Part shown: positions 6,361-23,840 of the stretch, one piece after another | Numbering within the stretch: the stretch's first letter is position 1 | How the letters are laid out: every line of letters starts with the position of its first letter | From: a virus | Virus record (IMG/VR): IMGVR_UViG_3300023297_001550 | Span: 1 to 25,752 of that record | Length of the DNA: 25,752 nt | Direction: 5' to 3' (one strand) | Program-made: the position numbers and the translations under genes | Notes under the pieces: model-generated | Database searches by the model: none | What the model was told of the DNA's origin: nothing | Seen by the model: the letters and a program-made list of their open reading frames with translations, nothing else

Positions 6361-6603
6361 ATGGCAAGAAGAGGTTTAAATTCTGTTTGGTTGAATAAAA
6401 TACGCGATAAATTGAATGCGATTGAGTCCAATGGTTTTGACCCAATAATCCTTTCTTACAATCCCGCTGCCCAATGGTTAATAACAAATATAGCAAAAAT
6501 GGGATATATTCCAAAGGTTGAAAATCTCGGAGCCGGAGTCAAACGAATAAGCATAAAAGGAACCTGCTGCAAAACTTGTGGGCAAACAACAAAGGAGAAA
6601 TAA
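6361..6603 (+). CDS. Small hypothetical protein with CCxxC end
   Basis: 80 residues, not recognised. It follows AAAGGAG and starts three bases after the previous stop. The N-terminal half is helical and basic (MARRGLNSVWLNKIRDKL); the C-terminus carries GTCCKTCG, possibly a metal site or half-site for dimerisation. No membrane segment or catalytic motif is visible. Confidence 0.55.
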   Translation: MARRGLNSVWLNKIRDKLNAIESNGFDPIILSYNPAAQWLITNIAKMGYIPKVENLGAGVKRISIKGTCCKTCGQTTKEK

Positions 6604-6605
6604 AA

Positions 6606-6905
6606 ATGGATAGTAAAACAAGAGAAGAATTAACAGAAAATGTAATTGATTGTATTCACTCCCTGGATCATTCCTTACAACAATGCAAAGGCGGAGATAT
6701 GGAAAGCACAGAAACCTTAAAATCTATGACCATGTTTAATTTCATTTGTCATGTAGCCGCCCCAAACGGGATCAGGTTTCACTATGAAAGCCGGTCCTAT
6801 GAAGAACAAACCAAAGAAAAATATTCAACAGCGGGCGGAAAAATGATACAAGTAAAATCAAAAGAGGATCTGAATGATATCGAGGTCCACACCCAGCCAG
6901 ATTAA
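6606..6905 (+). CDS. Hypothetical protein
   Basis: 99 residues. ATG 6606 is chosen because AAAGGAG ends about 10 bases before it; an in-frame upstream ATG at 6576 lies within the previous gene and lacks a site. The N-terminal half is acidic and helical; the centre has FICHVAAPNGIRFHYESR, and the C-terminus looks like short beta strands. It resembles no family I can name. It is the last gene before the 6906-7067 gap. Confidence 0.6.
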   Translation: MDSKTREELTENVIDCIHSLDHSLQQCKGGDMESTETLKSMTMFNFICHVAAPNGIRFHYESRSYEEQTKEKYSTAGGKMIQVKSKEDLNDIEVHTQPD

Positions 6906-6921
6906 TAAAAATTAAATTATT

Positions 6922-6950
6922 TTTAAAATTATTTAAAAAATTTATATAAT
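6922..6950 (+). promoter_or_regulatory. Promoter, TTTAAA-17-TATAAT class
   Basis: TTTAAA at 6922-6927 and TATAAT at 6945-6950 with a 17-base spacer, identical in hexamers and spacing to the sites at 4411, 11431 and 24207. The surrounding gap is extremely AT-rich. The expected start near 6957 would give a leader of about 110 bases that contains the cloverleaf-like element at 6971-7031, before the initiator gene. Confidence 0.65.
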
Positions 6951-6970
6951 ATAAAAGTAGATGTATTTTT

Positions 6971-7031
6971 CGGGCGTGTCATATGGCCATATGACCAGCG
7001 AAGGGATCGCTCATCCCTTCGCCCACGCTTG
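6971..7031 (+). promoter_or_regulatory. Cloverleaf-like element (two hairpins closed by an outer stem)
   Basis: An 18-base perfect palindrome at 6978-6995 (GTCATATGGCCATATGAC) is followed by a 10-bp stem 6998-7007/7013-7022 with a 5-base loop. The flanks 6971-6978 and 7024-7031 pair over 8 positions (6 Watson-Crick, 2 G-U), closing a three-way junction of 61 bases. It lies in the expected leader of the replication initiator gene, 28 bases before its AGGAG. It could be a leader RNA controlling translation or a DNA structure at a replication origin; no U-run follows, so it is not a terminator. Confidence 0.6.
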
Positions 7032-7067
7032 ATTATCAATAATGAGCAAATGGACTTCAGGAGAATT

Positions 7068-8432
7068 ATGAGCAATCAAAAAAGAGAGAGAATTTTAGCG
7101 GGTGGTGGTTTTTTATCAATAAATAAAATCTTTTTGAAACATCTTGGTGCGGATATGTCATGTTTTTTATCTATCCTTCTTGAATGGCATAATTATTTAA
7201 TCGAAAAAAATAAAATGCCAGAAGATGGATATTTCTTTTTAGAACAAGTCCGTATTGAAAAAACAATCAGGTTATCAAGTTTCCAACAACGTCAAATTTT
7301 AAACTCTTTTAAAGAATGGGGTTTTATACTTGCAGAACGCAGAAACATCCCTCCTAAATATTGGTATTTCATTAATGAAGATCGGCTAATACAGTTTTTT
7401 AATTACTTAAACTTTAAAGGTTTAGAAATTAAAGGTTTAAACATTAAAGAACTAAATCTATATTATAATAAGACTAATTTTAATAATACTAATATAGATA
7501 CTAATACTTCTAAAGAAGTATTTAAAAGGGTTTCTAACGAAACCCCAAATGATTCTTTAATTCCAAGAAGGAAAAGAACTTCCAGAGACAGATTACAATT
7601 ACAACAAAAGTTTAGAAGAAAAGATATAAGAAAAACCTCCATTAATCATTCCATACCCGGTTACGTGATAAATATAATTAATCAATGGAATAAAAATCTA
7701 TCAACAACAACCCATAAATTAGATTTAGAAAATCCCTCCAAAACAATCAAATCCATTCATCAATATTTAACTCAATTAAAGACCGGTAAAATGTCCGGTT
7801 TAAATTCTATCTGGTTAAAAAAGAATAAAATTCCAAATTCCTTTTTAACCCGTAAATGGACCGAAGAAGAATTATGTACTGGAATTGAGCATCTATCTAA
7901 ATATTCTCAGAACGATTATTGGCCCCCAAATAAAATAAATAATCCCTGGATCAAATCCCTGCCAGGTTTATTATATAATTCGACGCAAAGAAATTCCCTG
8001 TTCTTGCAAGTCATGAATAATCCACCAAAGAAATTATCAGAACAAAAAATAATTAATCATCCAAATATGGCAGCATTATTTATCAAGGCAAATATATGGA
8101 TGGATAGAACCCCTCCAAGTGAATGTGATGTTGACCGGGTTTTGGATGGCCTATTCCCTTTTGTCCGCGAAATGAAAATAAAAATTAAAAGGATGGAGGG
8201 CAAGGTTGATCCAAGAAGTCTAAATGGGTCAGGCCGGTTCACATCTATGTTTTGGCAGCGTTATATCGAATTTATTGAAACCTCCAGTATTGTTTTGAAT
8301 GATGCCTGGCAACTAAACATAAAAGGCTGGGTGTTTGAAAAATATTTAAAAGACATCTGGGATCAGATACAATCCGATGGTTCCACCCTAAATCCTCTAA
8401 TAGTTCTAAAAAAGCTTTTAAATAACCTTTAA
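7068..8432 (+). CDS. Putative winged-helix replication initiator / replisome organiser
   Basis: 454 residues from ATG 7068, which has AGGAG at 7059-7063; earlier in-frame starts (TTG 7029, ATG 7050) lack a site and 7029 overlaps the cloverleaf. The N-terminal 100 residues (SCFLSILLEWHNYLIEK; DGYFFLEQVRIEKTIRLSS; QILNSFKEWGFILAERR; PPKYWYFIN) follow the pattern of phage replication proteins of the O/DnaD/RepA type: a winged helix with a conserved tryptophan/tyrosine wing ending in a WYxIN strand. A basic Thr/Asn-rich linker follows (about 135-195), then a helical C-terminal domain that I do not recognise. Its position just before the DnaB-like helicase suggests origin binding and helicase loading, by analogy only. 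Confidence 0.6.
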   Translation: MSNQKRERILAGGGFLSINKIFLKHLGADMSCFLSILLEWHNYLIEKNKMPEDGYFFLEQVRIEKTIRLSSFQQRQILNSFKEWGFILAERRNIPPKYWYFINEDRLIQFFNYLNFKGLEIKGLNIKELNLYYNKTNFNNTNIDTNTSKEVFKRVSNETPNDSLIPRRKRTSRDRLQLQQKFRRKDIRKTSINHSIPGYVINIINQWNKNLSTTTHKLDLENPSKTIKSIHQYLTQLKTGKMSGLNSIWLKKNKIPNSFLTRKWTEEELCTGIEHLSKYSQNDYWPPNKINNPWIKSLPGLLYNSTQRNSLFLQVMNNPPKKLSEQKIINHPNMAALFIKANIWMDRTPPSECDVDRVLDGLFPFVREMKIKIKRMEGKVDPRSLNGSGRFTSMFWQRYIEFIETSSIVLNDAWQLNIKGWVFEKYLKDIWDQIQSDGSTLNPLIVLKKLLNNL

Positions 8433-10391: not shown

Positions 10392-10775
10392 ATGGTATCA
10401 ATAACAAAGATTTATGAATTTGAAGCCGCCCATCATTTGCCCCATCATAAAGGAGCTTGCCATCAACTGCATGGGCATTCGTATCGTTTAGAAATAACGA
10501 TATCAGGGTCAATTCAGGTTGACGGTCCAAGCAGAGGAATGATTATGGATTTTTCTGTATTGAAAGGAATGATTGAAAACCTACCAATAGCTACACTTGG
10601 CAAATTAGATCATAGCAATCTCAACGATTATTACGACAATCCAACCGCCGAAATCATGGTGCATAAAATAGCAAGAGATATAGAATTAATGCTGTGGGAG
10701 GAATCAATTACACTTGAGCGGGTGCGGCTGTGGGAAACAAAAACCTCATACGCAACATGGGAGAATTACAAATGA
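10392..10775 (+). CDS. queD: QueD, 6-carboxytetrahydropterin synthase
   Basis: 127 residues, the usual length for the 6-pyruvoyl-tetrahydropterin synthase family. The zinc ligands are His14 in FEAAHHLP and His27 and His29 in QLHGHSY; catalytic Cys23 lies in ACHQLHGH. The LDHSNLND motif supplies His74, PTAE and VRLWET (Glu115) complete the active site, all matching the bacterial QueD pattern. It converts dihydroneopterin triphosphate to 6-carboxytetrahydropterin, the second step toward 7-deazaguanines (preQ0). AAAAGGAG lies 7-10 bases before the ATG. It overlaps queE as ATGA, so the two are coupled. In phages these genes usually serve 7-deazaguanine DNA modification rather than tRNA queuosine. 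Confidence 0.93.
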   Translation: MVSITKIYEFEAAHHLPHHKGACHQLHGHSYRLEITISGSIQVDGPSRGMIMDFSVLKGMIENLPIATLGKLDHSNLNDYYDNPTAEIMVHKIARDIELMLWEESITLERVRLWETKTSYATWENYK

Positions 10776-11425
10776 TAAATATAAACGAAATATTCCAAAG
10801 CATCAATGGCGAAATTACTGCTTGGCATCAAGGATCATTGACGACATTCATCAGATTTGCCGGGTGTAATCTCTCATGTACCTACTGCGACGCCGCATCT
10901 GCCAGCGAGATCAATTCCAAATTATTACCATATCAGATTGTGGATATTGTTGAAAAGACAGGATGCAAACAGGTAACAATAACCGGAGGCGAACCCACCT
11001 TACAATATGATGAATTGCAGGAATTGCTCTATGGTTTAGTTTTGGCATTGCAATGCAAAATAACCGTTGAGACAAATGGAACCCATCCAATCCCGGAATG
11101 GATGGAAGATCATATTTCCTGGATAGTTGATTACAAATTTGACTATTCCCACAAAATGATTTATGGCAATTTTGAAAGATGCATCGATAATAATTGGTTG
11201 AAATTTGTAATAGATAAGGAACAGGATTTGCCTATGCTTGAATATTTATTTTCTACTCACCCAATTTTGCATAAAGCAAACGTCGCCATCGGCACCACCG
11301 GCAATGTTCCTCATGCTCAGATTGTTGATTTTCTGATAGACCGGAAACTTTTTAATTGTGTCCTAAACTATCAAATTCATAAGAAAATCTGGCCGATCAG
11401 AAAGGAGGGCAAAAAAATATTGTAA
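10772..11425 (+). CDS. queE: QueE, 7-carboxy-7-deazaguanine synthase (radical SAM)
   Basis: 217 residues from ATG 10772; an upstream in-frame ATG at 10730 lies inside queD and is not needed. The N-terminus INEIFQSINGE and the CxxxCxxC cluster motif (Cys32, Cys36, Cys39 in GCNLSCTYCD) are typical of QueE, as are TITGGEPTLQ, VETNG and the C-terminal QIHKKIWP. It uses SAM and a 4Fe-4S cluster to contract the QueD product to 7-carboxy-7-deazaguanine. The ATGA overlap with queD indicates coupled translation. QueC, FolE and a DNA-inserting DpdA are not in this window, so later steps would come from elsewhere in the phage or from the host. Confidence 0.93.
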   Translation: MININEIFQSINGEITAWHQGSLTTFIRFAGCNLSCTYCDAASASEINSKLLPYQIVDIVEKTGCKQVTITGGEPTLQYDELQELLYGLVLALQCKITVETNGTHPIPEWMEDHISWIVDYKFDYSHKMIYGNFERCIDNNWLKFVIDKEQDLPMLEYLFSTHPILHKANVAIGTTGNVPHAQIVDFLIDRKLFNCVLNYQIHKKIWPIRKEGKKIL

Positions 11426-12523: not shown

Positions 12524-13513
12524 ATGGGCATGATTCAAACAAATGAATTTAAAGGGTTACTTGGCGATATTATCCCGGAGACTCCAAAAATTAATAGGGA
12601 TAAATTATCTAATTTTCTTTATGAGAATTTAAAAGATATTTCTTTGATTGAGTTAGTTGGGTTATTAACAAATAAATATTCTGAAATCATAGAATATGTT
12701 AATTTATGCAAGGGGCTGAATACCTGCCAAAAAACATCTTTATTATTTAATCCACATCGACTTGATACAAAAACAAATTATTCAAAAGCATCCATTTATG
12801 AATCTTTAAAAAACAAATCATTTATAAATGGATTAGCACGGGCTTCTATCTTTAAAAATGGGAAAGTCAATGAATTATTATATCAAGTTCTTCAATTAGG
12901 AATAAATGGGATATCATATATAAATGAGTTCCCTCCACATAAATCAAGAGATTTGGCATATCAATTTGGGCTAAATTCAGAATCTAAAATATTAGACCCA
13001 TGCGCAGGTTGGGGTGGCAGAATGATCGGATTTTCCATTGTTTGTAATAATTATGAAGCGTTTGAGCCCTCTATAAAAACATATAATGGATTATTGAAAT
13101 TAGGAAAATTTATTCAAGGATTTAGAAATGAATTTAATCCTATTGTCCATTGCCTCCCATTTGAAGAATCAAGATTAAGAAAAAATAAATATGATTTCGC
13201 TATGACTTCACCTCCATATTATGACACAGAAAGATATTCTGGCGAAGAAACAAATTCATTAAACAGATATAAAACTTTTGAAAAATGGACAAATAATTTT
13301 TATTTACCATTAATCGAGAAAACAATGGGGTCCTTGAAACCAAATTGCACATTTGTTTTAAATATCGGATCAAGAAAATACCCATTAAATAAATTATTAT
13401 TATCTAATTTTACCAAGCAATACGAAATAAAAAAAATGAAATTTTCAATTAGTGGCAAGGCCGGATTAAACAAAAAAGGCGAAGGCGAAACATTCTATTC
13501 TATAACCAAATAA
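12524..13513 (+). CDS. DNA methyltransferase (amino-methylating, motif I before motif IV)
   Basis: 329 residues. The SAM-binding motif I is ILDPCAGWGGRM with Asp158, and the catalytic motif IV is TSPPYYDTERY at 228-233. The order I then IV differs from the beta-class enzyme encoded at 22794. SPPY-type motifs methylate exocyclic amino groups (N4-cytosine or N6-adenine); the target sequence cannot be read off. The first 150 residues are helical and may carry target recognition. No cognate nuclease is adjacent, so self-protection or regulation is more likely than restriction. It is markedly AT-richer than its neighbours and its ribosome site is weak (AGGAAA about 10 bases upstream), which suggests later acquisition. 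Start could also be ATG 12530. Confidence 0.85.
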   Translation: MGMIQTNEFKGLLGDIIPETPKINRDKLSNFLYENLKDISLIELVGLLTNKYSEIIEYVNLCKGLNTCQKTSLLFNPHRLDTKTNYSKASIYESLKNKSFINGLARASIFKNGKVNELLYQVLQLGINGISYINEFPPHKSRDLAYQFGLNSESKILDPCAGWGGRMIGFSIVCNNYEAFEPSIKTYNGLLKLGKFIQGFRNEFNPIVHCLPFEESRLRKNKYDFAMTSPPYYDTERYSGEETNSLNRYKTFEKWTNNFYLPLIEKTMGSLKPNCTFVLNIGSRKYPLNKLLLSNFTKQYEIKKMKFSISGKAGLNKKGEGETFYSITK

Positions 13514-14597: not shown

Positions 14598-16886
14598 ATG
14601 AATTTTTGCCACTTGCATTTACACACGGAATATTGTCTTGCCGGGGATACAATAATTTATAATTGCATCCAAAATGGCAAAAAGAATAGAAAAGATTATA
14701 CTCTGCCTCATAATTGCAAAACAATAAAATATTTATATGAGGCAGAGTATTCAAAAGAAAGAGGAAGAACAGCAAAAAAATATCCAATAAAAGTCTGGAA
14801 TGGATCTAAATTTGTAAGATCAAAAATAAAAAAAATCTCCAGATCATGCCCAAAACAGCTATATGAAATTTTAACAGAAAATGGAAAAAAAATAAGAACA
14901 TCTAAAAATCATAAATTTCTTAGCGCAATGGGTTGGAGAAGATTGTCTGAATTAGAAGTTGGTGATTTATTAGCGTGCAACGGACAAAAAAAATATGAAG
15001 ACAAAGAATGGTTGCTTAAAAAATATATTGAAGAAAATTTAAACCAACAACAAATAGCAGATATTTATAATGTCAGTAGAGACGTTATAAAGAAATTTCT
15101 AAAAAAATATAACATCCATAAAACAAAAAATGAATGGATGAAAGGCCATTTTGTTTCAGATCAATGTCGGGGAAAAATAAGCAAAATAAAATTAGAAATA
15201 AGAAAAAATTTAATTAATGAAATTCCATCTTCATTAAGCACAAGCAGAAGTCGGGTTAATCGTAGATGGTATTTAGAAAAAAAGAAATGCAATAGATGTG
15301 AATCAAAGAAGAATCTGCTTATTCACCATAAAGACCGAGACCCCATTAATAATAAAATTGAAAATTTAGAAGTCTTATGCAAATCATGCCATGAATTTGA
15401 ACACGCCAGATGTCCACTCACCATAAGATACGAAAAAATTATTTCGATAAAAAAGGATAAAATAGAAGAAACATACGACATAGAAGTATTCCATCAATCG
15501 CATAATTTTATTGCCAATGGCTTTGTGGTTCACAACTCACAATTGGATGGGGTCGGTTCCCCAAAACAGTATGCCAAACGAGCCAAAGAAATGGGCTTTG
15601 AATATCTGGCTATGACTGATCATGGAAATTGCGATGGAGCTATCCAATTCCAGAAGGCTTGTAAGGCAGAAGGCATCAAATCCGTAATCGGTTGTGAAAT
15701 GTATATTGTGCCTTATATGGACGCGAAACACAAGGGCGAAAAGCGAGGGCATATAACGGTATTAGTCAAGGACTTATCGGGCTGGGAAACTCTTCTAAGG
15801 CTGCTTACCAAGGCAAATTTAGAAGGGTTCTACCACAAACCCAGGATAGATTATGAATCCATGCTCAATGTTGATTTATCCGGCCTGATTATTATGACCG
15901 CCTGTGCGGGATCATTTTTACATTTAGATGGATCGATTGATTTTTTATGTGATCTTATCCAAAATAAAGTTGAATGTTATTACGAAATAATGCCTCATAA
16001 TATTCCTGCCCAAGAAAAAATACATAAAATTATTGAACAAGTTTATGACGAAATAGATTTACCATTCGCCGCAACCAATGACACCCACTATATTAATCGG
16101 GGTGATTGGCAAGCCCAGGAAGTATTATTGGCTATTCAATCCAAGGCAAAATGGAAGGATGAAAACAGGTTTAAATTTGGATTCAAGGGTTTGCATCTAC
16201 GATCTGAAAAAGAGATGGTCCGGGCATTTCAAAAACAAGGTTATTGGTCAAATAAAATTATAAAAGAAGCAATGGACAATACGATTAAAATTGCTGAAAA
16301 ATGCTGTGATTTTGTTATCCCAAAACAAGATATATCTTTGCCAGAGCCTCCAGGAACGAAACATCGAAACAAAGATCATATTACGGCCTCCGCCAATGAT
16401 GATCAAGAATTATCTTATCTTATTTACAGTAGCAATAAAGAACCCTTATTGGAGAATAAAATTTATTCAGATAGGCTTGATTACGAATTTGATATTATTT
16501 CCCAAAAGGGATTTTCAAGATATTTTCTCATTGTTGTTGATCTCCTTAATTGGTGTGATAAAAATGATATCATGTTTGGCCCCGGCAGGGGTTGTTTTAC
16601 TCCGGATTCAAAAATAATTTGTTCATCTCATAATAAAATAGAATATAAAAATATATCAAGTATCGAAACTGGAGATAATGTTATTTGTCATGATGGAACA
16701 ACAAATAAAGTCATTGATAAATTACAATATGATATTGAAGAAGAAATTATTGAAATAGAAACGATAGACGGTAGAATTATTGAATGCACATTAGACCATA
16801 AAATAATGACAGATAAAGGATGGATTGAAGCGCAATATTTGAACCCGACTTATCAAATATTAGATTGGAGAAAAAACAATGGATGA
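14598..16886 (+). CDS. dnaE: DNA polymerase III alpha, N-terminal gene: PHP domain, intein 1, and N-half of intein 2
   Basis: 762 residues. Residues 1-12 (CHLHLHTEY) and 314 onward (SQLDGVGSPKQY; LAMTDHGNCDGAIQF; SVIGCEMYIV) form the PHP domain of a C-family polymerase, interrupted by intein 1 at residues 13-313. The polymerase domain then starts (FSRYFLIVVDLLNWCD; FGPGRG). At residue 666 intein 2 begins directly after GPGRG, and its N-half ends at the stop 16884-16886. Host-type extein in this gene is 364 residues. The rest of the enzyme is in the gene starting at 16879, in another frame. AAGGTG precedes the ATG, 3 bases after the clamp stop. Without splicing of both inteins the polymerase would be non-functional. 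Confidence 0.9.
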   Translation: MNFCHLHLHTEYCLAGDTIIYNCIQNGKKNRKDYTLPHNCKTIKYLYEAEYSKERGRTAKKYPIKVWNGSKFVRSKIKKISRSCPKQLYEILTENGKKIRTSKNHKFLSAMGWRRLSELEVGDLLACNGQKKYEDKEWLLKKYIEENLNQQQIADIYNVSRDVIKKFLKKYNIHKTKNEWMKGHFVSDQCRGKISKIKLEIRKNLINEIPSSLSTSRSRVNRRWYLEKKKCNRCESKKNLLIHHKDRDPINNKIENLEVLCKSCHEFEHARCPLTIRYEKIISIKKDKIEETYDIEVFHQSHNFIANGFVVHNSQLDGVGSPKQYAKRAKEMGFEYLAMTDHGNCDGAIQFQKACKAEGIKSVIGCEMYIVPYMDAKHKGEKRGHITVLVKDLSGWETLLRLLTKANLEGFYHKPRIDYESMLNVDLSGLIIMTACAGSFLHLDGSIDFLCDLIQNKVECYYEIMPHNIPAQEKIHKIIEQVYDEIDLPFAATNDTHYINRGDWQAQEVLLAIQSKAKWKDENRFKFGFKGLHLRSEKEMVRAFQKQGYWSNKIIKEAMDNTIKIAEKCCDFVIPKQDISLPEPPGTKHRNKDHITASANDDQELSYLIYSSNKEPLLENKIYSDRLDYEFDIISQKGFSRYFLIVVDLLNWCDKNDIMFGPGRGCFTPDSKIICSSHNKIEYKNISSIETGDNVICHDGTTNKVIDKLQYDIEEEIIEIETIDGRIIECTLDHKIMTDKGWIEAQYLNPTYQILDWRKNNG
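14634..15536 (+). mobile_element. Intein 1: in-frame HNH intein in the DnaE PHP motif
   Basis: 301 residues inserted between Tyr and Ser of HLHTEY/SQLDG. It starts with Cys (CLAGDTIIYN) and ends GFVVHN before Ser+1, the residues needed for splicing. Block B is present as IRTSKNHKFLSAMGWRRLSE. A helix-turn-helix-like segment (QQQIADIYNVSRDVIKKF) and an HNH nuclease follow: CNRC at 231-234, LLIHHKDRD, NKIENLEVLCKSCH ending at 265. Block F is ETYDIEVFHQSHNFIANG. All parts are in one frame, so this looks like a normal, potentially mobile large intein. The N-terminal extein is only 12 residues. Confidence 0.92.
16593..16886 (+). mobile_element. Intein 2, N-terminal half
   Basis: 97 residues beginning with Cys (CFTPDSKIICSS) right after GPGRG of the polymerase. 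Block A, the middle strands (ISSIETGDNVICHDG) and block B (GRIIECTLDHKIMTDKGWIE, with TLDH) are intact. The frame ends 20 residues later at TGA 16884-16886. The point of breakage, after block B, is where natural split inteins are divided and where endonucleases normally sit. The C-half is at the end of 16879-17622. Confidence 0.9.
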
Positions 16887-17622
16887 AATTTGGAAGGATG
16901 TCAATTTTATCGACAACAAAGGAGATATAATTAATTTTTCGGGATTGTACCAAATTTCAAATATGGGAAGAATTAAAAGTCTTTCTCGCGATATAAAAGC
17001 AAGCGAATCTGGAACCTTGAGAAAAACCGAAGAAAAAATTATACGAGGATCGTCTTCTGGTTTAAATAATTATATTGACGTTAATTTATGGTGGAACAAT
17101 ATTTCTTACACAATCCAAAAAAGCAGGTTAGTAGCTTATATGTTTTTAACCAATCCGGATAATAAGCCATGTGTAGAACATCTAAATACAATAAGGACAG
17201 ACGATAGAGTTGAAAATTTAAGATGGTGTACATATTTAGAAAATAACAATAACCCAATAACCAAACAAAAACAGCGTGTATCAAATAGAATTGCAAATAC
17301 CCCCAAGAAAAGGAAAAAGATTTCCAAAACATTAAAAAAATATTTTCTAAAAAACAAAAACCCATGGGCAACAGAAATAATAAATACAAAAACAAATGAG
17401 AAATTTGACTCTATAAAAAAGGCGGCTAACAGTATAAATAAAGACAGCGAATGGCTTGCAAGAAAATTAAGAGGTCGTTGTAAAAACAATACTGATTTTC
17501 AATATGTTAAAAAATACGCACAAATAAAATCGGTTAAAAGAAAAAAATATAAAGGGTTGGTATATGATTTAACAGTCAAAAACAAACACAGCTATAATAT
17601 TGAAGGATTAGCTGTTCATAAT
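16879..17622 (+). mobile_element. Homing endonuclease (NUMOD4-HNH-NUMOD1) joined to the C-half of intein 2
   Basis: 248 residues at the front of the second dnaE gene. A NUMOD4-like start (IWKDVNFIDNKG; GLYQISNMGRIKSLSRD) is followed by an HNH motif of the VEHLNTIRTDDRVENLRWCT type near residues 95-115. A lysine-rich linker leads to a NUMOD1-like DNA-binding segment (FDSIKKAANSINKDSEWLAR). The last ~35 residues are intein block F and G (GLVYDLTVKNKHSYNIEGLA, then VHN before Ser+1). No in-frame ATG separates endonuclease from C-intein, so they are expected to be one polypeptide. Confidence 0.88.
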
Positions 17623-19275
17623 TCAGTCGGTGGAAGTCTTATCGCATATTTATTAGGATTTACAGAAACAGATCCAATCAAATATGGATTATATTTTTCC
17701 AGGTTTATTTCAGAGGAACGCAACGATCTCCCGGATATTGACATCGATTTTGAGGATCGGAAAAGACATCTGGTAATTGAATATCTTGAAAAGACTTATG
17801 GCAAATATAACACTGCTGGAATATCCACTTTCCTGAGAATGAAAGATCGGGCTATAATCCACGATGTTGGCAAGGTGTTTGATGTGCCATACAAAACAGT
17901 AAATGAATTCGCCCAAAGTATTGTTCCTTACCGGGACGATATGAATACCCTTGAAAAGGTTTTGGAACTGGATGAAGGGCAGGAATTCAAAAAGCAATAT
18001 CCAGAAGTGGTCCGCAATGCACTAAAATTAAAAGGAACCATAAAATCAAGTGGTCAACATGCTGCTGCTGTTGTCATATCTAAAGAAGACCTCCGGAAAA
18101 CTAATCGCTGTAATTTGGCTGTCAGATCCAAGCGAATTATGGTTAATTTTGATATGGAAGATAGTGAGTATTGCGGCTTGATGAAACTCGATATATTGGG
18201 CTTGAATACATTATCTGTGCTTGCTCAGACTAAAAAATTGATCAACAAAAAAGATTTCGAATTCAGAAATATTCCACTTGACGATCAAAATATTTTTACA
18301 ATGCTTTCCAGGGGCGAGACAGCGGGCGTATTCCAGTTGTCTGCCGTCCCATCTACAAAGTTATGTAAGGATATGGGGGTCAAGGAGTTCGTTGATATAC
18401 CGGCCATTCTGGCCCTTGTACGGCCTGGTCCGTTCTACTCCGGTATGACCGAAATGTATATTGAAAGATATCACGGGAAGAAGTATCAGAAAACCCATCC
18501 TATTTACGATTCCATTACAAAAGAAACATATGGACTTCTTGTCTATCAAGAACAAGTAATGGCTGTCATTTCTAAGATGGCCGGATTGCCGGAATCAACA
18601 GCGGATAAAATCAGAAAAATAATTGGCAAGAAAAGGGATTCGTCGGCATTTGAAGAATATAAAAAAATATTTATTAGAGGATGTTTGAAACAGAAAACTT
18701 TTTCCCGTAAACAAGCCCTCCAATTTTGGGCAGGACTTTTGGAATGGGCAAGCTACGGATTCTCGAAAAGTCACGCAACAGAATACGGGTTAATCTCATA
18801 CTGGACAGCATGGTTAAAATATCATTATCCATCTGAATTTATGGCTGCTGAATTAACATATGGGACAGGTAAAGAAGATATTGCAAACGAAGCCAGGAAA
18901 CGGGGTATCAAAATCATTACACCCAAAATAGGTTTTTCCGATGCTATTGAATGGAGGGTTGCTGATAAAATATTGTACGCTCCATTTATCGAAATAAAAG
19001 GTGTTGGTGAAAAGGAAGCCCATAAAATATTAAATCCAATATCCCAAAATTCGGGTGGTTTTTTTAATTTAAAAGATGTCGTGGCTATTTCAAAATCTTC
19101 TTTTTCGGGAACAACAGCCATAACATTGAGCAAAATAAAAGCCCATGATCAACATGAAGTTCCAGAAGAAAAGATTTTAAAGGAATATTTTTCAGAAGGA
19201 TTATTTATTACTCAAAAAGAATCTCCTATAAGTCGAAGGCCAAGAAGAAAAAACAGAGATGAGATCCCTTTCTAA
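16879..19275 (+). CDS. dnaE: DNA polymerase III alpha, C-terminal gene: endonuclease, C-half of intein 2, polymerase core
   Basis: 798 residues. ATG 16879 overlaps the upstream stop by 8 bases (ATGGATGA) and has GGAG at 16867-16870 with an 8-base gap, so it can initiate on its own. Residues 1-248 are the endonuclease and C-intein. From residue 249 (SVGGSLIAYLLGFTETDPI) the C-family polymerase core continues: PDIDIDF with Asp286 and Asp288, SGQHAAAVVIS, and KLDILGLNT with Asp438, the three catalytic aspartates. VRPGPF, YQEQVM and FSKSHATEY follow. Total extein from both genes is about 914 residues, shorter than E. coli DnaE (1160), lacking much of the C-terminal OB/tau-binding part. No proofreading exonuclease is visible in the window. 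Confidence 0.9.
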   Translation: MDEIWKDVNFIDNKGDIINFSGLYQISNMGRIKSLSRDIKASESGTLRKTEEKIIRGSSSGLNNYIDVNLWWNNISYTIQKSRLVAYMFLTNPDNKPCVEHLNTIRTDDRVENLRWCTYLENNNNPITKQKQRVSNRIANTPKKRKKISKTLKKYFLKNKNPWATEIINTKTNEKFDSIKKAANSINKDSEWLARKLRGRCKNNTDFQYVKKYAQIKSVKRKKYKGLVYDLTVKNKHSYNIEGLAVHNSVGGSLIAYLLGFTETDPIKYGLYFSRFISEERNDLPDIDIDFEDRKRHLVIEYLEKTYGKYNTAGISTFLRMKDRAIIHDVGKVFDVPYKTVNEFAQSIVPYRDDMNTLEKVLELDEGQEFKKQYPEVVRNALKLKGTIKSSGQHAAAVVISKEDLRKTNRCNLAVRSKRIMVNFDMEDSEYCGLMKLDILGLNTLSVLAQTKKLINKKDFEFRNIPLDDQNIFTMLSRGETAGVFQLSAVPSTKLCKDMGVKEFVDIPAILALVRPGPFYSGMTEMYIERYHGKKYQKTHPIYDSITKETYGLLVYQEQVMAVISKMAGLPESTADKIRKIIGKKRDSSAFEEYKKIFIRGCLKQKTFSRKQALQFWAGLLEWASYGFSKSHATEYGLISYWTAWLKYHYPSEFMAAELTYGTGKEDIANEARKRGIKIITPKIGFSDAIEWRVADKILYAPFIEIKGVGEKEAHKILNPISQNSGGFFNLKDVVAISKSSFSGTTAITLSKIKAHDQHEVPEEKILKEYFSEGLFITQKESPISRRPRRKNRDEIPF

Positions 19276-19309: not shown

Positions 19310-21670
19310 ATGATAAAAAAATACGAAGAATATCTTAAAAAAAAAGTAAATGTCGCAATGCCCAGTGGATTCGATACCCCATTAAAAAAATTGAATCCCA
19401 TGCTTTTTGATTGGCAAGCCATCCTTACAAAATGGGCAATTGCCAGAGGCCGGGCAGCTTTATTTGAGGATTGTGGCCTGGGCAAAACATGCCAATTACT
19501 CGAATGGTCAAAGCAAATTCATAAAAAAGAAAAAGAACCAATTTTGATTCTCGCACCATTAGCCGTATCAGAACAAACACAAAGAGAAGGCAAAAAATTT
19601 GGAATAGATGTAAATATTTGTGTTAATGATAGTGATGTAATTAATGGAATAAATATCACCAATTATGAAAAACTTCATAAATTTGACCCTGATAGATTTG
19701 TTGGAATTGTACTGGATGAATGTTTTTCTCCTGACACTCCAATAGATGTTTTTAATATTGACAATTCTTTAGGATCGAAGTATATTAAAGATGTCACCAT
19801 TGGGGATAAAATTTATAATGCAGGAGGAATTGATCATGTATATAATATCTGTAAAAGACCCATCGACAGGGCGGTTCAAATTCGTATCAAAGGAAGGCCG
19901 TTTACCTGTAGCGAACATCATCCATGGTTTACCTTGCATGGATGGAGATTCGCAAAAGATTTACAACCCGAAGATTGTCTCATGGCAACAGAAGAGACAA
20001 TGCGCTTGGTGCGGGGTGATTTTTCGTCCAAAATATGTGGCGAACAAAATGGCGAGGTTTTGCGGGACATCTTGCTCAGCGAAATGGAGGATGAATACTC
20101 CAGAACACAAAGCAAAAGTACATACCCCAGAGATAGCGGCCAAAAGGGGAATTTCGAGATCAAAATGGCTTCGAAGCGGAGATCCCAAAGCGATAAAAGA
20201 AATGGATCGAATAGCCAATTTAAATCCAATGTCAAATCCCAAAACAATCGAAAAAATGATTCAAACCAAAACAGCCAACGGAACATTTCGGCAATGGAAA
20301 GGAAAAAAGGGAGGCAACGGTCGACCATTCTCAATCCCGCAACAAATAATGATAGAATGCCTGTCAAAAAAATGGATTCCAGAATATCCAATTTCTTTAG
20401 GAAAAAGGCAACCTGGATATCCAACCTGTTACAAAGTGGATGTAGGAAATCCAACTCTAAAAATAGCAATAGAAATAGATGGGGCAGGACACGTGAACAA
20501 AAAAGTACAAATTATCGACAAAAAGAAAGATCAAAAATTGATATCTTTAGGGTGGAAAGTATTGAGATTTTGGAACAAGGACATCCTGAATTGGAAAAAT
20601 ACAGGGATGAATCAGGCATCGTATATTTCTATGACATTGAAGCAGAACGGCATCCATCTTTCAGCGTAAACGGATGCCTTGTTCATAATTCCAGTATTTT
20701 GAAAAATTTCTCCGGAGCAATTCGAAATGAAATTATTGGTTCTTTCCAAAAAACTAAATATCGCCTTGCTTGTACTGCAACCCCAGCCCCCAATGATTAT
20801 ATGGAGTTGGGAAACCATTCTGAATTTTTAGGAGTGATGACAAGATCAGAAATGCTATCAACCTTTTTTATAAACGATACTGACAAAGTTGGCCATTGGC
20901 GATTAAAGGGACATGTAAAAAATAATATATTTTGGAAATGGATGGCATCATGGGCAATCATGATTAATAAACCATCTGATATCGGATTTGATAATAGCGG
21001 ATTTGAATTACCAGAAATTGAATATCATGAACATATTATAAAATCAGACGCAAAACCAACAGAAGGATTATTATTATTACAAACAGCATCAACATTAGAT
21101 GAACGTCGGAAAGTAAGACGGGAAACAGTTGAAATTAGATGTCAAACAGCGGCAGATATAATTAACCCAACTGATAGTAGATGGGTCTGTTGGGTTAATT
21201 TAAACCCAGAAGGTGAGGCAATCACAAAAAAAGTTAATTACGCCAAAGAAGTTGCAGGTAGACATTCTAATGATATCAAAATCCAGAGAATGATTGGATT
21301 TGCTTCCGGCGATTTGAAACGGATAGCGACCAAACCAAAAATAGCAGGCCTTGGTATGAATTGGCAAGTTTGCAATAAAGCGGCATTTATTGGACTGAGT
21401 GATAGTTGGGAACAATTCTATCAGGCAGTAAGGCGCATATGGAGATTTGGGCAAAAAGAGAAAGTCGATATTCATATTTTTATTGAAGAGCGGGAAGGAT
21501 CTGTTTTAAAAAACATTAGGCGTAAAGATAAACAGGCAAAATTAATGACTGAAAATATGATAAATCATACAAAAGATTTTGCTAAAATAGAATTGGAACA
21601 ATCCAAAAAAACATTTATTGATTATTCACCTACTAAAAAAATGAGGTTGCCAAAATGGATAACAGGGTAA
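19310..21670 (+). CDS. Second SNF2-like helicase, interrupted by intein 3 in Walker B
   Basis: 786 residues, of which 463 are extein. Motif I is FEDCGLGKT with Lys59. Motif II is VLDE (136-137) directly followed by intein 3, and resumes as SSILKNFSG, so the spliced protein reads VLDESSILKNF. LACTATPAPNDYMELGNHSE is motif III. The C-terminal half has KIAGLGMNWQVCN and QAVRRIWRFGQKEKV, motifs V-VI. It is a compact DNA translocase of the kind often next to methyltransferases in phages; its substrate is unknown. TAAGGAT precedes the ATG weakly. Its last 16 bases overlap the radical SAM gene. The intein is required to leave before ATPase activity is possible, because it splits the catalytic DE from its loop. 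Confidence 0.88.
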   Translation: MIKKYEEYLKKKVNVAMPSGFDTPLKKLNPMLFDWQAILTKWAIARGRAALFEDCGLGKTCQLLEWSKQIHKKEKEPILILAPLAVSEQTQREGKKFGIDVNICVNDSDVINGINITNYEKLHKFDPDRFVGIVLDECFSPDTPIDVFNIDNSLGSKYIKDVTIGDKIYNAGGIDHVYNICKRPIDRAVQIRIKGRPFTCSEHHPWFTLHGWRFAKDLQPEDCLMATEETMRLVRGDFSSKICGEQNGEVLRDILLSEMEDEYSRTQSKSTYPRDSGQKGNFEIKMASKRRSQSDKRNGSNSQFKSNVKSQNNRKNDSNQNSQRNISAMERKKGRQRSTILNPATNNDRMPVKKMDSRISNFFRKKATWISNLLQSGCRKSNSKNSNRNRWGRTREQKSTNYRQKERSKIDIFRVESIEILEQGHPELEKYRDESGIVYFYDIEAERHPSFSVNGCLVHNSSILKNFSGAIRNEIIGSFQKTKYRLACTATPAPNDYMELGNHSEFLGVMTRSEMLSTFFINDTDKVGHWRLKGHVKNNIFWKWMASWAIMINKPSDIGFDNSGFELPEIEYHEHIIKSDAKPTEGLLLLQTASTLDERRKVRRETVEIRCQTAADIINPTDSRWVCWVNLNPEGEAITKKVNYAKEVAGRHSNDIKIQRMIGFASGDLKRIATKPKIAGLGMNWQVCNKAAFIGLSDSWEQFYQAVRRIWRFGQKEKVDIHIFIEEREGSVLKNIRRKDKQAKLMTENMINHTKDFAKIELEQSKKTFIDYSPTKKMRLPKWITG
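19721..20689 (+). mobile_element. Intein 3: intein frame with an endonuclease gene nested in another frame
   Basis: 323 residues (helicase residues 138-460). It starts CFSPDTPIDVFN and ends VNGCLVHN before Ser+1. N-side blocks are clear: KDVTIGDKIYN and RPFTCSEHHPWFTLHGWRFA (block B). The C-side has IVYFYDIEAERHPSFSVNG (block F). Between about 19995 and 20535 the intein frame codes for a low-complexity Ser/Asn/Lys/Arg/Gln chain (KSNSKNSNRNRWGRTREQ and similar) with no recognisable domain, yet without a single stop. The conserved endonuclease is in the overlapping frame (19836-20669). The intein therefore seems to be a splicing domain with a long neutral insert. Confidence 0.9.
19836..20669 (+). 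CDS. Vsr/DUF559-like homing endonuclease nested out of frame within intein 3
   Basis: 278 residues, wholly inside the intein, +1 relative to its frame. ATG 19836 has a perfect AGGAGG (19822-19827) 8 bases upstream; an in-frame ATG at 19791 has none. Its first ~50 residues overlap intein-coding block B and look unconserved. From about 20000 there is a zinc finger (QCAWCGVIF and ARFCGTSCSAKWR), a linker with NPMSNPKTIEKM and KKGGNGRPFSIPQQ, and a nuclease domain: GYPTCYKVDVGNPTLKIA, IEIDGAGH, then KKDQKLISLGWKVLRFWNKD. This matches the Vsr-fold DUF559/EDxHD-type homing nucleases known from phages, including those found in fractured, split-intein genes. It would cut intein-less alleles of the helicase gene. 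Confidence 0.87.
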   Translation: MYIISVKDPSTGRFKFVSKEGRLPVANIIHGLPCMDGDSQKIYNPKIVSWQQKRQCAWCGVIFRPKYVANKMARFCGTSCSAKWRMNTPEHKAKVHTPEIAAKRGISRSKWLRSGDPKAIKEMDRIANLNPMSNPKTIEKMIQTKTANGTFRQWKGKKGGNGRPFSIPQQIMIECLSKKWIPEYPISLGKRQPGYPTCYKVDVGNPTLKIAIEIDGAGHVNKKVQIIDKKKDQKLISLGWKVLRFWNKDILNWKNTGMNQASYISMTLKQNGIHLSA

Positions 21671-22791
21671 TTAACGAAAATCAATTAATTGAAATGCTCA
21701 AAAAAGCAAAAAATATTTTATTAATAGAACCTCCATATCGGCGGAGTTATATTCCATTAGGATTGGCTAAAATATCCACATTTGCAAAATCTAATGGAGC
21801 GAAAATAACTTATTCAAGGGGAATTATTCCTGGCAATTTTAATTTGATTTGTATCACTTCTATGTTCACCAATGATTCCGACAAAGTTTTAAAAGTCATA
21901 CATGATTGTCAAAATGGCCTACTTTTAAATAATGTGCCTGTTATTGTTGGTGGAATATATGCCTCAATAATGTCAAAACACGTATTAAAAAACACATCAA
22001 AAAATCTTTACGTTTTTACGGGTCATTCAAAAATACTTGATTCTTATTTACCGGATTATGATCTTGATTATGGTATGAGTGGATTTTTTAATAATGTAAT
22101 GACTTTATTTACGACAAGGGGATGCGTAAATAAATGCGCGTATTGCATGGTCTGGCGGATGGAGCAAGAATATTATATCTGTCCAAATTGGAAGGGAAAT
22201 ATTGAAAATATAGACCGAGAAGTTTGCATGGTTTCAGATAATAGCTTTTTATCCGCCCCACATGAGCATATTAAAAATGTAATCCATTGCCTGAATGAAA
22301 ATAATAAAAAAGTGATATTCAATAATGGCATGAATTGTAGAGAAATTAATGATAAAAATGCAAAGTTGCTTGCTTCTTTAAAATATACAAGGCAGGGGTT
22401 TAGAATTGGATTTGATAGAATAAAAGATGATGGTCATTATCAAAAAGCCATGGAGAAATTGCAAAAAGCTGGATTAAAATTATCAGGCAACTCTTATACA
22501 TATGTTTTATATAATTTTGAAGAAACTCCGCAAGATGCTTATTACAGGGCAACTGAAGCATGGAAATTTAAAAGCAATCCATATTTAATGCGATACCGGC
22601 CTTTAAATCAAACCCATAAAAAATTAGATTATATTGGAAAATATTGGACAAAAAATCTTATTAGAGCCTTTTCTTATTACGGTTCGACATTTGGATATAA
22701 TAGGGGTGATAAAACTTTTGAAGGATGGATGAAAAGTTCCGATATAAAATTGACTAATGAAGATTGGGATAAATGGAATTACAGGAGATAA
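21655..22791 (+). CDS. Radical SAM protein with B12-binding-like N-terminus
   Basis: 378 residues. The N-terminal 130 residues (NILLIEPPYRRSYIPLGLAK; VPVIVGGIYASIMS) look like the Rossmann-type cobalamin-binding fold found before some radical SAM domains, but the diagnostic DxHxxG is not seen, so cobalamin binding is doubtful. The cluster motif is Cys157, Cys161, Cys164 (GCVNKCAYCMVW). The rest shows barrel strands (VCMVSDNSFLSAP; FRIGFDRIKDDG). The substrate is unknown. It overlaps the helicase end by 16 bases and is followed by a DNA methyltransferase, so a role in DNA or nucleotide modification is an inference from context. ATG 21655 has GAGG about 9 bases upstream. Confidence 0.78.
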   Translation: MDNRVINENQLIEMLKKAKNILLIEPPYRRSYIPLGLAKISTFAKSNGAKITYSRGIIPGNFNLICITSMFTNDSDKVLKVIHDCQNGLLLNNVPVIVGGIYASIMSKHVLKNTSKNLYVFTGHSKILDSYLPDYDLDYGMSGFFNNVMTLFTTRGCVNKCAYCMVWRMEQEYYICPNWKGNIENIDREVCMVSDNSFLSAPHEHIKNVIHCLNENNKKVIFNNGMNCREINDKNAKLLASLKYTRQGFRIGFDRIKDDGHYQKAMEKLQKAGLKLSGNSYTYVLYNFEETPQDAYYRATEAWKFKSNPYLMRYRPLNQTHKKLDYIGKYWTKNLIRAFSYYGSTFGYNRGDKTFEGWMKSSDIKLTNEDWDKWNYRR

Positions 22792-22793
22792 AA

Positions 22794-23840
22794 ATGACAA
22801 CTGAAATCGTGCAAAACATAATCAACGAAACAGAATTCTACAAACAAAAATTAAAAGAAGCCGATGCAAAATTATTTGAATATAATAACAATAAAAAGAA
22901 ATATGTTCCCAAAATTATCAGTCAAGAAATAACAGATCAATGGTCGGTATATCATGGAGATGCTATAGAAGTTATAAAGGGATTGCCATCAAATTCAATT
23001 CATTACTCCTTGTTTAGTCCGCCTTTTAGTTCTCTTTTTACATATTCTGCATCCATCAGGGATATGGGGAATTCCACGGATCAGCAATTTTATGATCATT
23101 TTTCATTTTTAATTCCTGAATTATATCGCATAACAATGCCGGGCCGGTTATTGAGTTTTCATTGCTCCGATATCCCGGCCATGAAAGAGCGGGATGGATA
23201 CATCGGGCTAAAAGACTTTCCAGGAATATTATTAAGAGAATTTGAAAAAGTAGGATTTATTTACCATAGCAAAGTACAAATTAAAAAAAATGAATTATTT
23301 GAAGCCGTAAGAACAAGAGCCATAAGTCTTGCCCATAAACAAGTTGTAAAAGATTCGGCCATATGTAGACAGGCCCTCCCGGATTATATTGTAACAATTC
23401 GAAAGCCCGGTAATAATCCGGAACCAATTTCAAGAAAAAATGGATTTGAGCATTATGTTGGCTCAAAACAACAACCGGACAGGCCAAAACACAAAGAACA
23501 TAATTTAAATAGATTTAGCCAAAAAATATGGCAAAGATATGCATCGTCTATTTGGCTTGATATTCGACAATCTGATACCTTAAATGTTAAACAGGCAAGG
23601 GAGAAAGATGATGAACGCCATATCTGTCCTTTGCAGCTTGATGTAATATCAAGATGTCTTGAGCTATGGACAAATAAAGGAGATATTGTTTTTTCGCCTT
23701 TTGCGGGTATTGGATCAGAAGGATATGAAGCGTTAAAAATGAAGAGAAGGTTTATTGGATGTGAATTGAAAAAATCTTATTACAATGTCACGGTTAAGAA
23801 TCTGAAAGAAAACAAGAAGCAAATTAAACCATTCTTTTAA
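22794..23840 (+). CDS. DNA methyltransferase, beta-class type with SPPF motif
   Basis: 348 residues from ATG 22794, which has AGGAG at 22783-22787; the in-frame ATG 22773 lies in the radical SAM gene. WSVYHGDAIEVIKGLPSNSI precedes motif IV, FSPPFSS (SPPF 75-78), and motif I comes late as FSPFAGIGSEGYEA near 301-314, followed by RRFIGCELKKSYY. This order is beta-class N4-cytosine/N6-adenine methyltransferase. Phe replaces the usual Tyr of SPPY, seen also in some active phage enzymes. Residues 130-250 would hold target recognition. It forms a block with the SNF2 helicase and radical SAM gene. No endonuclease partner is seen. Confidence 0.86.
   Translation: MTTEIVQNIINETEFYKQKLKEADAKLFEYNNNKKKYVPKIISQEITDQWSVYHGDAIEVIKGLPSNSIHYSLFSPPFSSLFTYSASIRDMGNSTDQQFYDHFSFLIPELYRITMPGRLLSFHCSDIPAMKERDGYIGLKDFPGILLREFEKVGFIYHSKVQIKKNELFEAVRTRAISLAHKQVVKDSAICRQALPDYIVTIRKPGNNPEPISRKNGFEHYVGSKQQPDRPKHKEHNLNRFSQKIWQRYASSIWLDIRQSDTLNVKQAREKDDERHICPLQLDVISRCLELWTNKGDIVFSPFAGIGSEGYEALKMKRRFIGCELKKSYYNVTVKNLKENKKQIKPFF

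What the first reader, a model, noticed from the sequence alone, without database searches (positions are those of the whole stretch)
16593..17622. DnaE intein split at its endonuclease site, with the HNH endonuclease fused to the C-half
Seen: after GPGRG of DnaE, intein blocks A and B are followed by a stop at 16886; ATG 16879 (GGAG 8 bases upstream, 8-base overlap) starts a NUMOD4-HNH-NUMOD1 endonuclease that runs on without another ATG into intein blocks F and G and then SVGGSLIAY of the polymerase. Known: natural split inteins (cyanobacterial DnaE, phage fractured genes) have separated halves, sometimes with free-standing endonucleases between. Here the halves are still adjacent and the nuclease stays on the C-precursor, which looks like an early or intermediate step in split-intein evolution. 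Active phage polymerase would depend on trans-splicing. Caveat: the break lies at a run of six A (16871-16876); one A fewer would fuse everything into one frame.
Basis: partly seen in the sequence, partly recalled or inferred. Interest (0 to 1): 0.82.

Follow-up and report, generated by a model that had tools for sequence, protein, structure and literature searches.

The report
Split DnaE intein carrying fused endonuclease
In this phage the DNA polymerase is made as two separate proteins, each carrying half of a self-splicing intein that should stitch them together, and the intein's DNA-cutting enzyme is fused to the second half instead of being a separate gene as in its relatives.

Summary
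DnaE is broken inside an intein inserted at the catalytic GPGRG|SVGGS site. The N-precursor (14598-16886) ends after intein blocks A and B. The C-precursor (16879-19275) starts with a NUMOD4-HNH-NUMOD1 nuclease (best fold match I-HmuI) and runs in frame into blocks F and G and the polymerase. A sequencing error is unlikely. A second contig with diverged flanks has the same DNA, the break lies at the native first Met of the nuclease family, an SD-like GGAG precedes the ATG, and the N-half stops where its relatives stop.

I found about 27 other distinct split DnaE inteins at this site in viral contigs. In every one the C-half has its own start (2-33 residues upstream), with either no nuclease or a separate PD-(D/E)XK-type ORF between the halves. 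The window alone carries a 219-residue nuclease extension. The splitting is therefore an established family trait ("fractured genes"); the fusion of the nuclease to the C-half is the new variant. Whether it is primitive or derived is unresolved. Trans-splicing is inferred, not shown. Noticed nearby: a second intein (SNF2-like gene) is overprinted by an out-of-frame nuclease ORF.

The parts
14598..16886 (+). DnaE N-precursor: PHP/N-extein + intein 1 + N-extein to GPGRG + N-half of intein 2
   Evidence: ORF; Pfam PHP 1.4e-30, DNA_pol3_alpha 1.5e-12
14634..15536 (+). Intein 1 (contiguous, with its own HNH), at HTEY|C...HN|SQLDG
   Evidence: Pfam Intein_splicing 1.4e-20; boundaries
16593..16883 (+). 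N-half of intein 2 (97 aa): Cys1, block B CTLDH, acidic (net -10); stop 28 residues after the block B His (family mostly 23-31)
16867..16870 (+). SD-like GGAG, 8 bases before ATG 16879
16871..16876 (+). A6 run at the frame break
   Evidence: same in L002
16879..16886 (+). ATGGATGA start/stop overlap, suited to coupled re-initiation
16879..19275 (+). C-precursor: HNH nuclease + C-half of intein 2 + DnaE C-extein
   Evidence: ORF 798 aa
16879..17514 (+). NUMOD4-HNH-NUMOD1 homing endonuclease domain, I-HmuI-like
   Evidence: Pfam; PHROG HNH 2.4e-19; Foldseek 1u3e E 1.1e-5, prob 1.00
17515..17622 (+). C-half of intein 2 (blocks F, G, terminal HN), basic (net +6)
17623..19272 (+). DnaE C-extein (SVGGS..., catalytic PDIDIDF)
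   Evidence: Pfam DNA_pol3_alpha 8.8e-55, finger 8.2e-43; PHROG 405 6e-174

Best explanation
It is a naturally split intein of a phage-borne family at the DnaE GPGRG|S site. Two precursors are made from overlapping genes, the second by coupled re-initiation or from its own SD. The acidic N-half and basic C-half associate and splice in trans, joining the 364- and 550-residue exteins into active DnaE. They release a 97-residue IntN and a 248-residue HNH-IntC. The HNH domain, still tied to IntC, acts as homing endonuclease on intein-free dnaE alleles. Shown: gene layout, domain identities, family membership, intact extein junction. Inferred: translation from ATG 16879, trans-splicing, nuclease activity and homing.
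For: Intein motifs on both halves. About 27 other split inteins at the same site, with the same N-half end. Clade support 95/94. Charge segregation -10/+6, like the split group and unlike the contiguous one (p 0.0007; relatedness not corrected). The C-ORF begins exactly at the first Met of free-standing NUMOD4-HNH proteins. GGAG at spacing 8. Second contig with the same break. Exteins under purifying selection against the 74%-identical L013 (dN 0.19; dS 2.2 for the C-extein, saturated for the N-extein). HNH model matches I-HmuI. Identical 4.4 kb tract with diverged flanks fits recent homing or recombination.
Against: No experiment. Only two contigs carry this exact form and they are identical here, so selection on the break itself cannot be measured. 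The SD is weaker than that of most genes in the contig. AlphaFold confidence for the C-intein part is low (about 50), since the halves could not be folded together.
Confidence: 0.8

Rival explanations
1. Assembly or sequencing error in the A6 run of an ordinary contiguous HNH maxi-intein.
For: One base fewer would fuse the frames. A one-base frameshift of this sort exists elsewhere: MAG locus L254 breaks inside a LAGLIDADG domain with no start codon at the break.
Against: Second contig with diverged flanks has the same A6. Unlike L254, the break sits exactly at a nuclease start Met with an SD-like site and at the family's N-half end.
Confidence: 0.07
2. The two frames are also joined by transcriptional slippage or +1 frameshifting at the A run, so that some intein is made in one piece and splices in cis.
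For: A6 at the break.
Against: The in-frame slippery heptamer A AAA AAC favours -1, which does not reach the downstream frame (sequence); a net +1 is needed. A6 is short for polymerase slippage (general knowledge). Not needed, since ATG 16879 gives the C-precursor.
Confidence: 0.08
3. Decaying gene: dnaE has been inactivated by nuclease insertion and the phage uses the host polymerase.
For: Homing nucleases do break genes (general knowledge); no polymerase or splicing activity has been shown here.
Against: Both exteins are full length, conserved and joined exactly at intein borders; dN is far below dS. Many phages keep split dnaE at this site.
Confidence: 0.05

Closest known systems
Fractured genes / split inteins with free-standing endonuclease (Dassa et al. 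2009, NAR, doi 10.1093/nar/gkp095; paper itself not readable here, content from memory, citation seen)
   Same: Phage DNA-metabolism gene broken by a split intein with a nuclease gene in the break; loci such as L116, L167, L294, L298, L396 fit this pattern directly
   Different: Here the nuclease is HNH and fused in frame to the C-half; in the relatives found it is a separate PD-(D/E)XK-type ORF or absent
Cyanobacterial split DnaE inteins (Ssp, Npu)
   Same: Split intein in dnaE with N-half and C-half on separate precursors; similar half sizes
   Different: As I recall, a different insertion site, distant genes and no nuclease
I-HmuI-type NUMOD4-HNH homing endonucleases (PDB 1u3e)
   Same: Domain order and fold
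   Different: Usually intron-encoded or free-standing; here fused to an intein C-half
Salmonella phage STP4-a uvsW helicase split intein (KJ000058)
   Same: N-half ending in a stop, ORF between, then second helicase part
   Different: Different gene; intervening ORF separate
Lactococcus phage 949 DnaE intein
   Same: Same insertion site, cultured phage
   Different: Contiguous; nuclease region looks LAGLIDADG-like

Membership tests
Naturally split intein | Blocks A and B on one ORF, F and G on another, broken between B and F | tested here: met
   break rule between B and F, PMC4031507
Naturally split intein | Nucleophile Cys1, terminal His-Asn, +1 Ser | tested here: met
   C at 16593, HN ending 17622, S at 17623
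Naturally split intein | Half sizes about 100-120 and 35-50 aa at the endonuclease insertion point (PMC13014065) | tested here: met
   97 aa (just under the range) and about 36 aa, the latter extended by the nuclease
Naturally split intein | Opposite charge on the two halves | tested here: met
   -10 and +6
Naturally split intein | Trans-splicing activity | not testable with these tools
   needs expression
Fractured gene (Dassa type) | Split intein breaks a DNA-metabolism gene of a phage, halves adjacent | tested here: met
Fractured gene (Dassa type) | Endonuclease gene free-standing between the halves | tested here: not met
   nuclease continuous with the C-half, no stop and no later start
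NUMOD4-HNH homing endonuclease | NUMOD4, HNH_3, NUMOD1 in order; I-HmuI fold | tested here: met
   (on the 248-aa piece NUMOD4 and HNH_3 pass their Pfam cut-offs, NUMOD1 does not)
NUMOD4-HNH homing endonuclease | Cuts the intein-free allele | not testable with these tools
   empty sites exist (L013 and others); cleavage untested
Contiguous maxi-intein | One reading frame through both halves | tested here: not met
   TGA at 16884, +1 frame afterwards

The most novel reading that the evidence does not exclude
A split maxi-intein in which the homing endonuclease is an obligate, covalent part of the C-precursor of an essential polymerase, so that nuclease supply is tied one-to-one to the C-half of DnaE. 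It would be a third state beside contiguous maxi-inteins and fractured genes, and would mark either the missing step from one to the other or a reversal by capture of an HNH gene.
Probability: 0.5. Interest if true: 0.62.

Novelty: new variant of a known kind. Interest (0 to 1): 0.5.

Why it matters
How contiguous inteins become split is an open question. The DnaE GPGRG|S site now shows, within one homologous phage family, contiguous mini-inteins, split pairs without nuclease, split pairs with a separate nuclease, and this fused form, so the order of steps can be tested. The family is also a source of about 27 uncharacterised split inteins for protein ligation.

Tried and rejected
Search of 50,697 phage records with the window's N-half: no match; relatives came from IMG/VR. 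H44 (99% cover by HNH query) proved to be a free-standing HNH, not an intein. L254 first looked like a second nuclease-C-half fusion; its break is a one-base shift inside LAGLIDADG without start, so it is not counted. Folding N-half plus C-half as one chain was dropped because no single four-letter codon word shifts the frame only once. dN/dS inside the intein is impossible because window and L002 are identical there. The first, smaller tree put L122 as sister of the window; the larger one leaves this open. The Dassa 2009 paper and the 2025 actinobacteriophage intein preprint are not held.

Full report
Observation. The upstream ORF 14598-16886 ends after blocks A and B of an intein that starts at Cys 16593. 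The downstream ORF starts at ATG 16879, overlaps by 8 bases, carries NUMOD4, HNH and NUMOD1, and runs into blocks F and G and the polymerase. The downstream frame is +1 to the upstream one. Two details differ: there are internal ATGs in the nuclease (16963, 17140), but none that could start the C-half alone; and the N-ORF also contains a full first intein.

Is the break real? A second contig, L002, is identical over 14616-19049 (4434 bases, no difference), with the A6 and the overlap, while the flanks carry 52 differences in about 1.1 kb upstream and 19 in about 0.3 kb downstream, and a different methyltransferase gene lies upstream. An exact 4.4 kb repeat would not be kept in two contigs of one short-read assembly, so I infer separate assemblies. 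The ATG is the usual first codon of free-standing NUMOD4-HNH nucleases (MDEIWKDV...; note that the scan used this peptide as one of its patterns, so the exact letters are favoured). The N-half ends 28 residues after the block B His; 22 of 25 other distinct split relatives end after 23-31. As a contrast, locus L254 shows what a plain frameshift looks like: inside the domain, without a start.

Family. All DnaE relatives from the C-extein scan with a readable N-part lack this intein (apart from L012, which is the L002 contig again), including the nearest at 74% identity (L013), with the exteins contiguous. Pattern and profile scans for GPGRG followed by Cys, for the C-half and for the N-half gave many inteins at the same site. 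They include bacterial and viral contiguous LAGLIDADG forms, a contiguous mini-intein (L122), and a viral group of split forms. In the split group from the N-half scan, 28 distinct C-halves have 2-33 residues before them in their frame, except the window with 219. In the break lies either nothing large (L111, L139, L379, L389, L402) or a separate ORF with mostly weak TnsA-like, DUF7487 or other PD-(D/E)XK matches. In the tree the window falls with 25 other split inteins and L122 (95/94), outside an all-split group of 24 (96/93); L396 is nearest by path.

Mechanism. The charges of the halves (-10, +6) are those of split inteins; in this data set split and contiguous forms differ, although the test ignores relatedness and trimmed ends. 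The exteins are under purifying selection. The nuclease model is confident over NUMOD4 and HNH (block pLDDT mostly 85-96, with a weak loop near residues 38-60) and matches I-HmuI first (Foldseek E 1.1e-5, prob 1.00). I conclude: two precursors, trans-splicing to active DnaE, and a released HNH-IntC that promotes homing. Translation, splicing and cleavage are inferred. The identical tract, which begins within 20 bases of intein 1 and ends 1.4 kb after intein 2, is what a recent homing or recombination event would leave; it does not prove which nuclease acted.

Known or new. The overall plan is that of the fractured genes of Dassa et al. 2009 (known to me from memory and from citations). The defining free-standing nuclease is not met; the nuclease is fused to the C-half. 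I found no description of that in the papers held, which is weak evidence because most papers are not held. So: a new variant of a known kind.

A neighbouring surprise. The SNF2-like gene 19310-21670 has an intein at DE|C...HN|SS; the relative L425 lacks it. Inside, in the +1 frame, lies a 292-residue nuclease-like ORF (DUF559 3.8e-10). The intein frame has no stop across it, where 12-20 would be expected from synonymous reshuffling (0 of 5000). The DnaE intein of L124 shows the same arrangement independently. A hidden out-of-frame HNH is known in a phage methylase (ShiLan domain, PMC11855218), but that element is not an intein. This deserves its own study.

Noticed in passing
window 19310-21670 with nested ORF 19791-20669; also L124 6258-8459 with 6532-7479: Inteins whose middle is overprinted by an out-of-frame (+1) nuclease-like ORF while the intein frame stays open (0 stops, 12-23 expected, 0 of 5000 reshufflings). 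Two independent genes (SNF2-like and DnaE). Possibly more novel than the given finding; the nested window ORF has no clear SD.
   Followed up: partly
window 14616-19049 against L002 3738-8171: 4.4 kb base-identical tract covering both DnaE inteins between flanks that differ by 5-7%: footprint of recent homing or recombination.
   Followed up: partly
L397 4304-4888: An extra ORF resembling an MT-A70-type adenine methylase (by eye) lies between the split DnaE intein half and the nuclease ORF.
   Followed up: no
L401-L405: Same split DnaE N-half end, but C-half at different distances (gap differs by 95 bases between L402 and the others), perhaps stages of nuclease loss.
   Followed up: no
L096 3298-7482: A phage DnaE split at another intein site, with a short ORF between the halves overlapping both.
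   Followed up: no
L094 4504-7942: Terminase-like gene with intein pieces in several frames around an HNH-like region.
   Followed up: no
window 10392-11425, 12524-13513, 22773-23840: QueD-like and QueE-like genes plus DNA methylase-like genes, hinting at modified bases in the phage DNA (read by eye).
   Followed up: no
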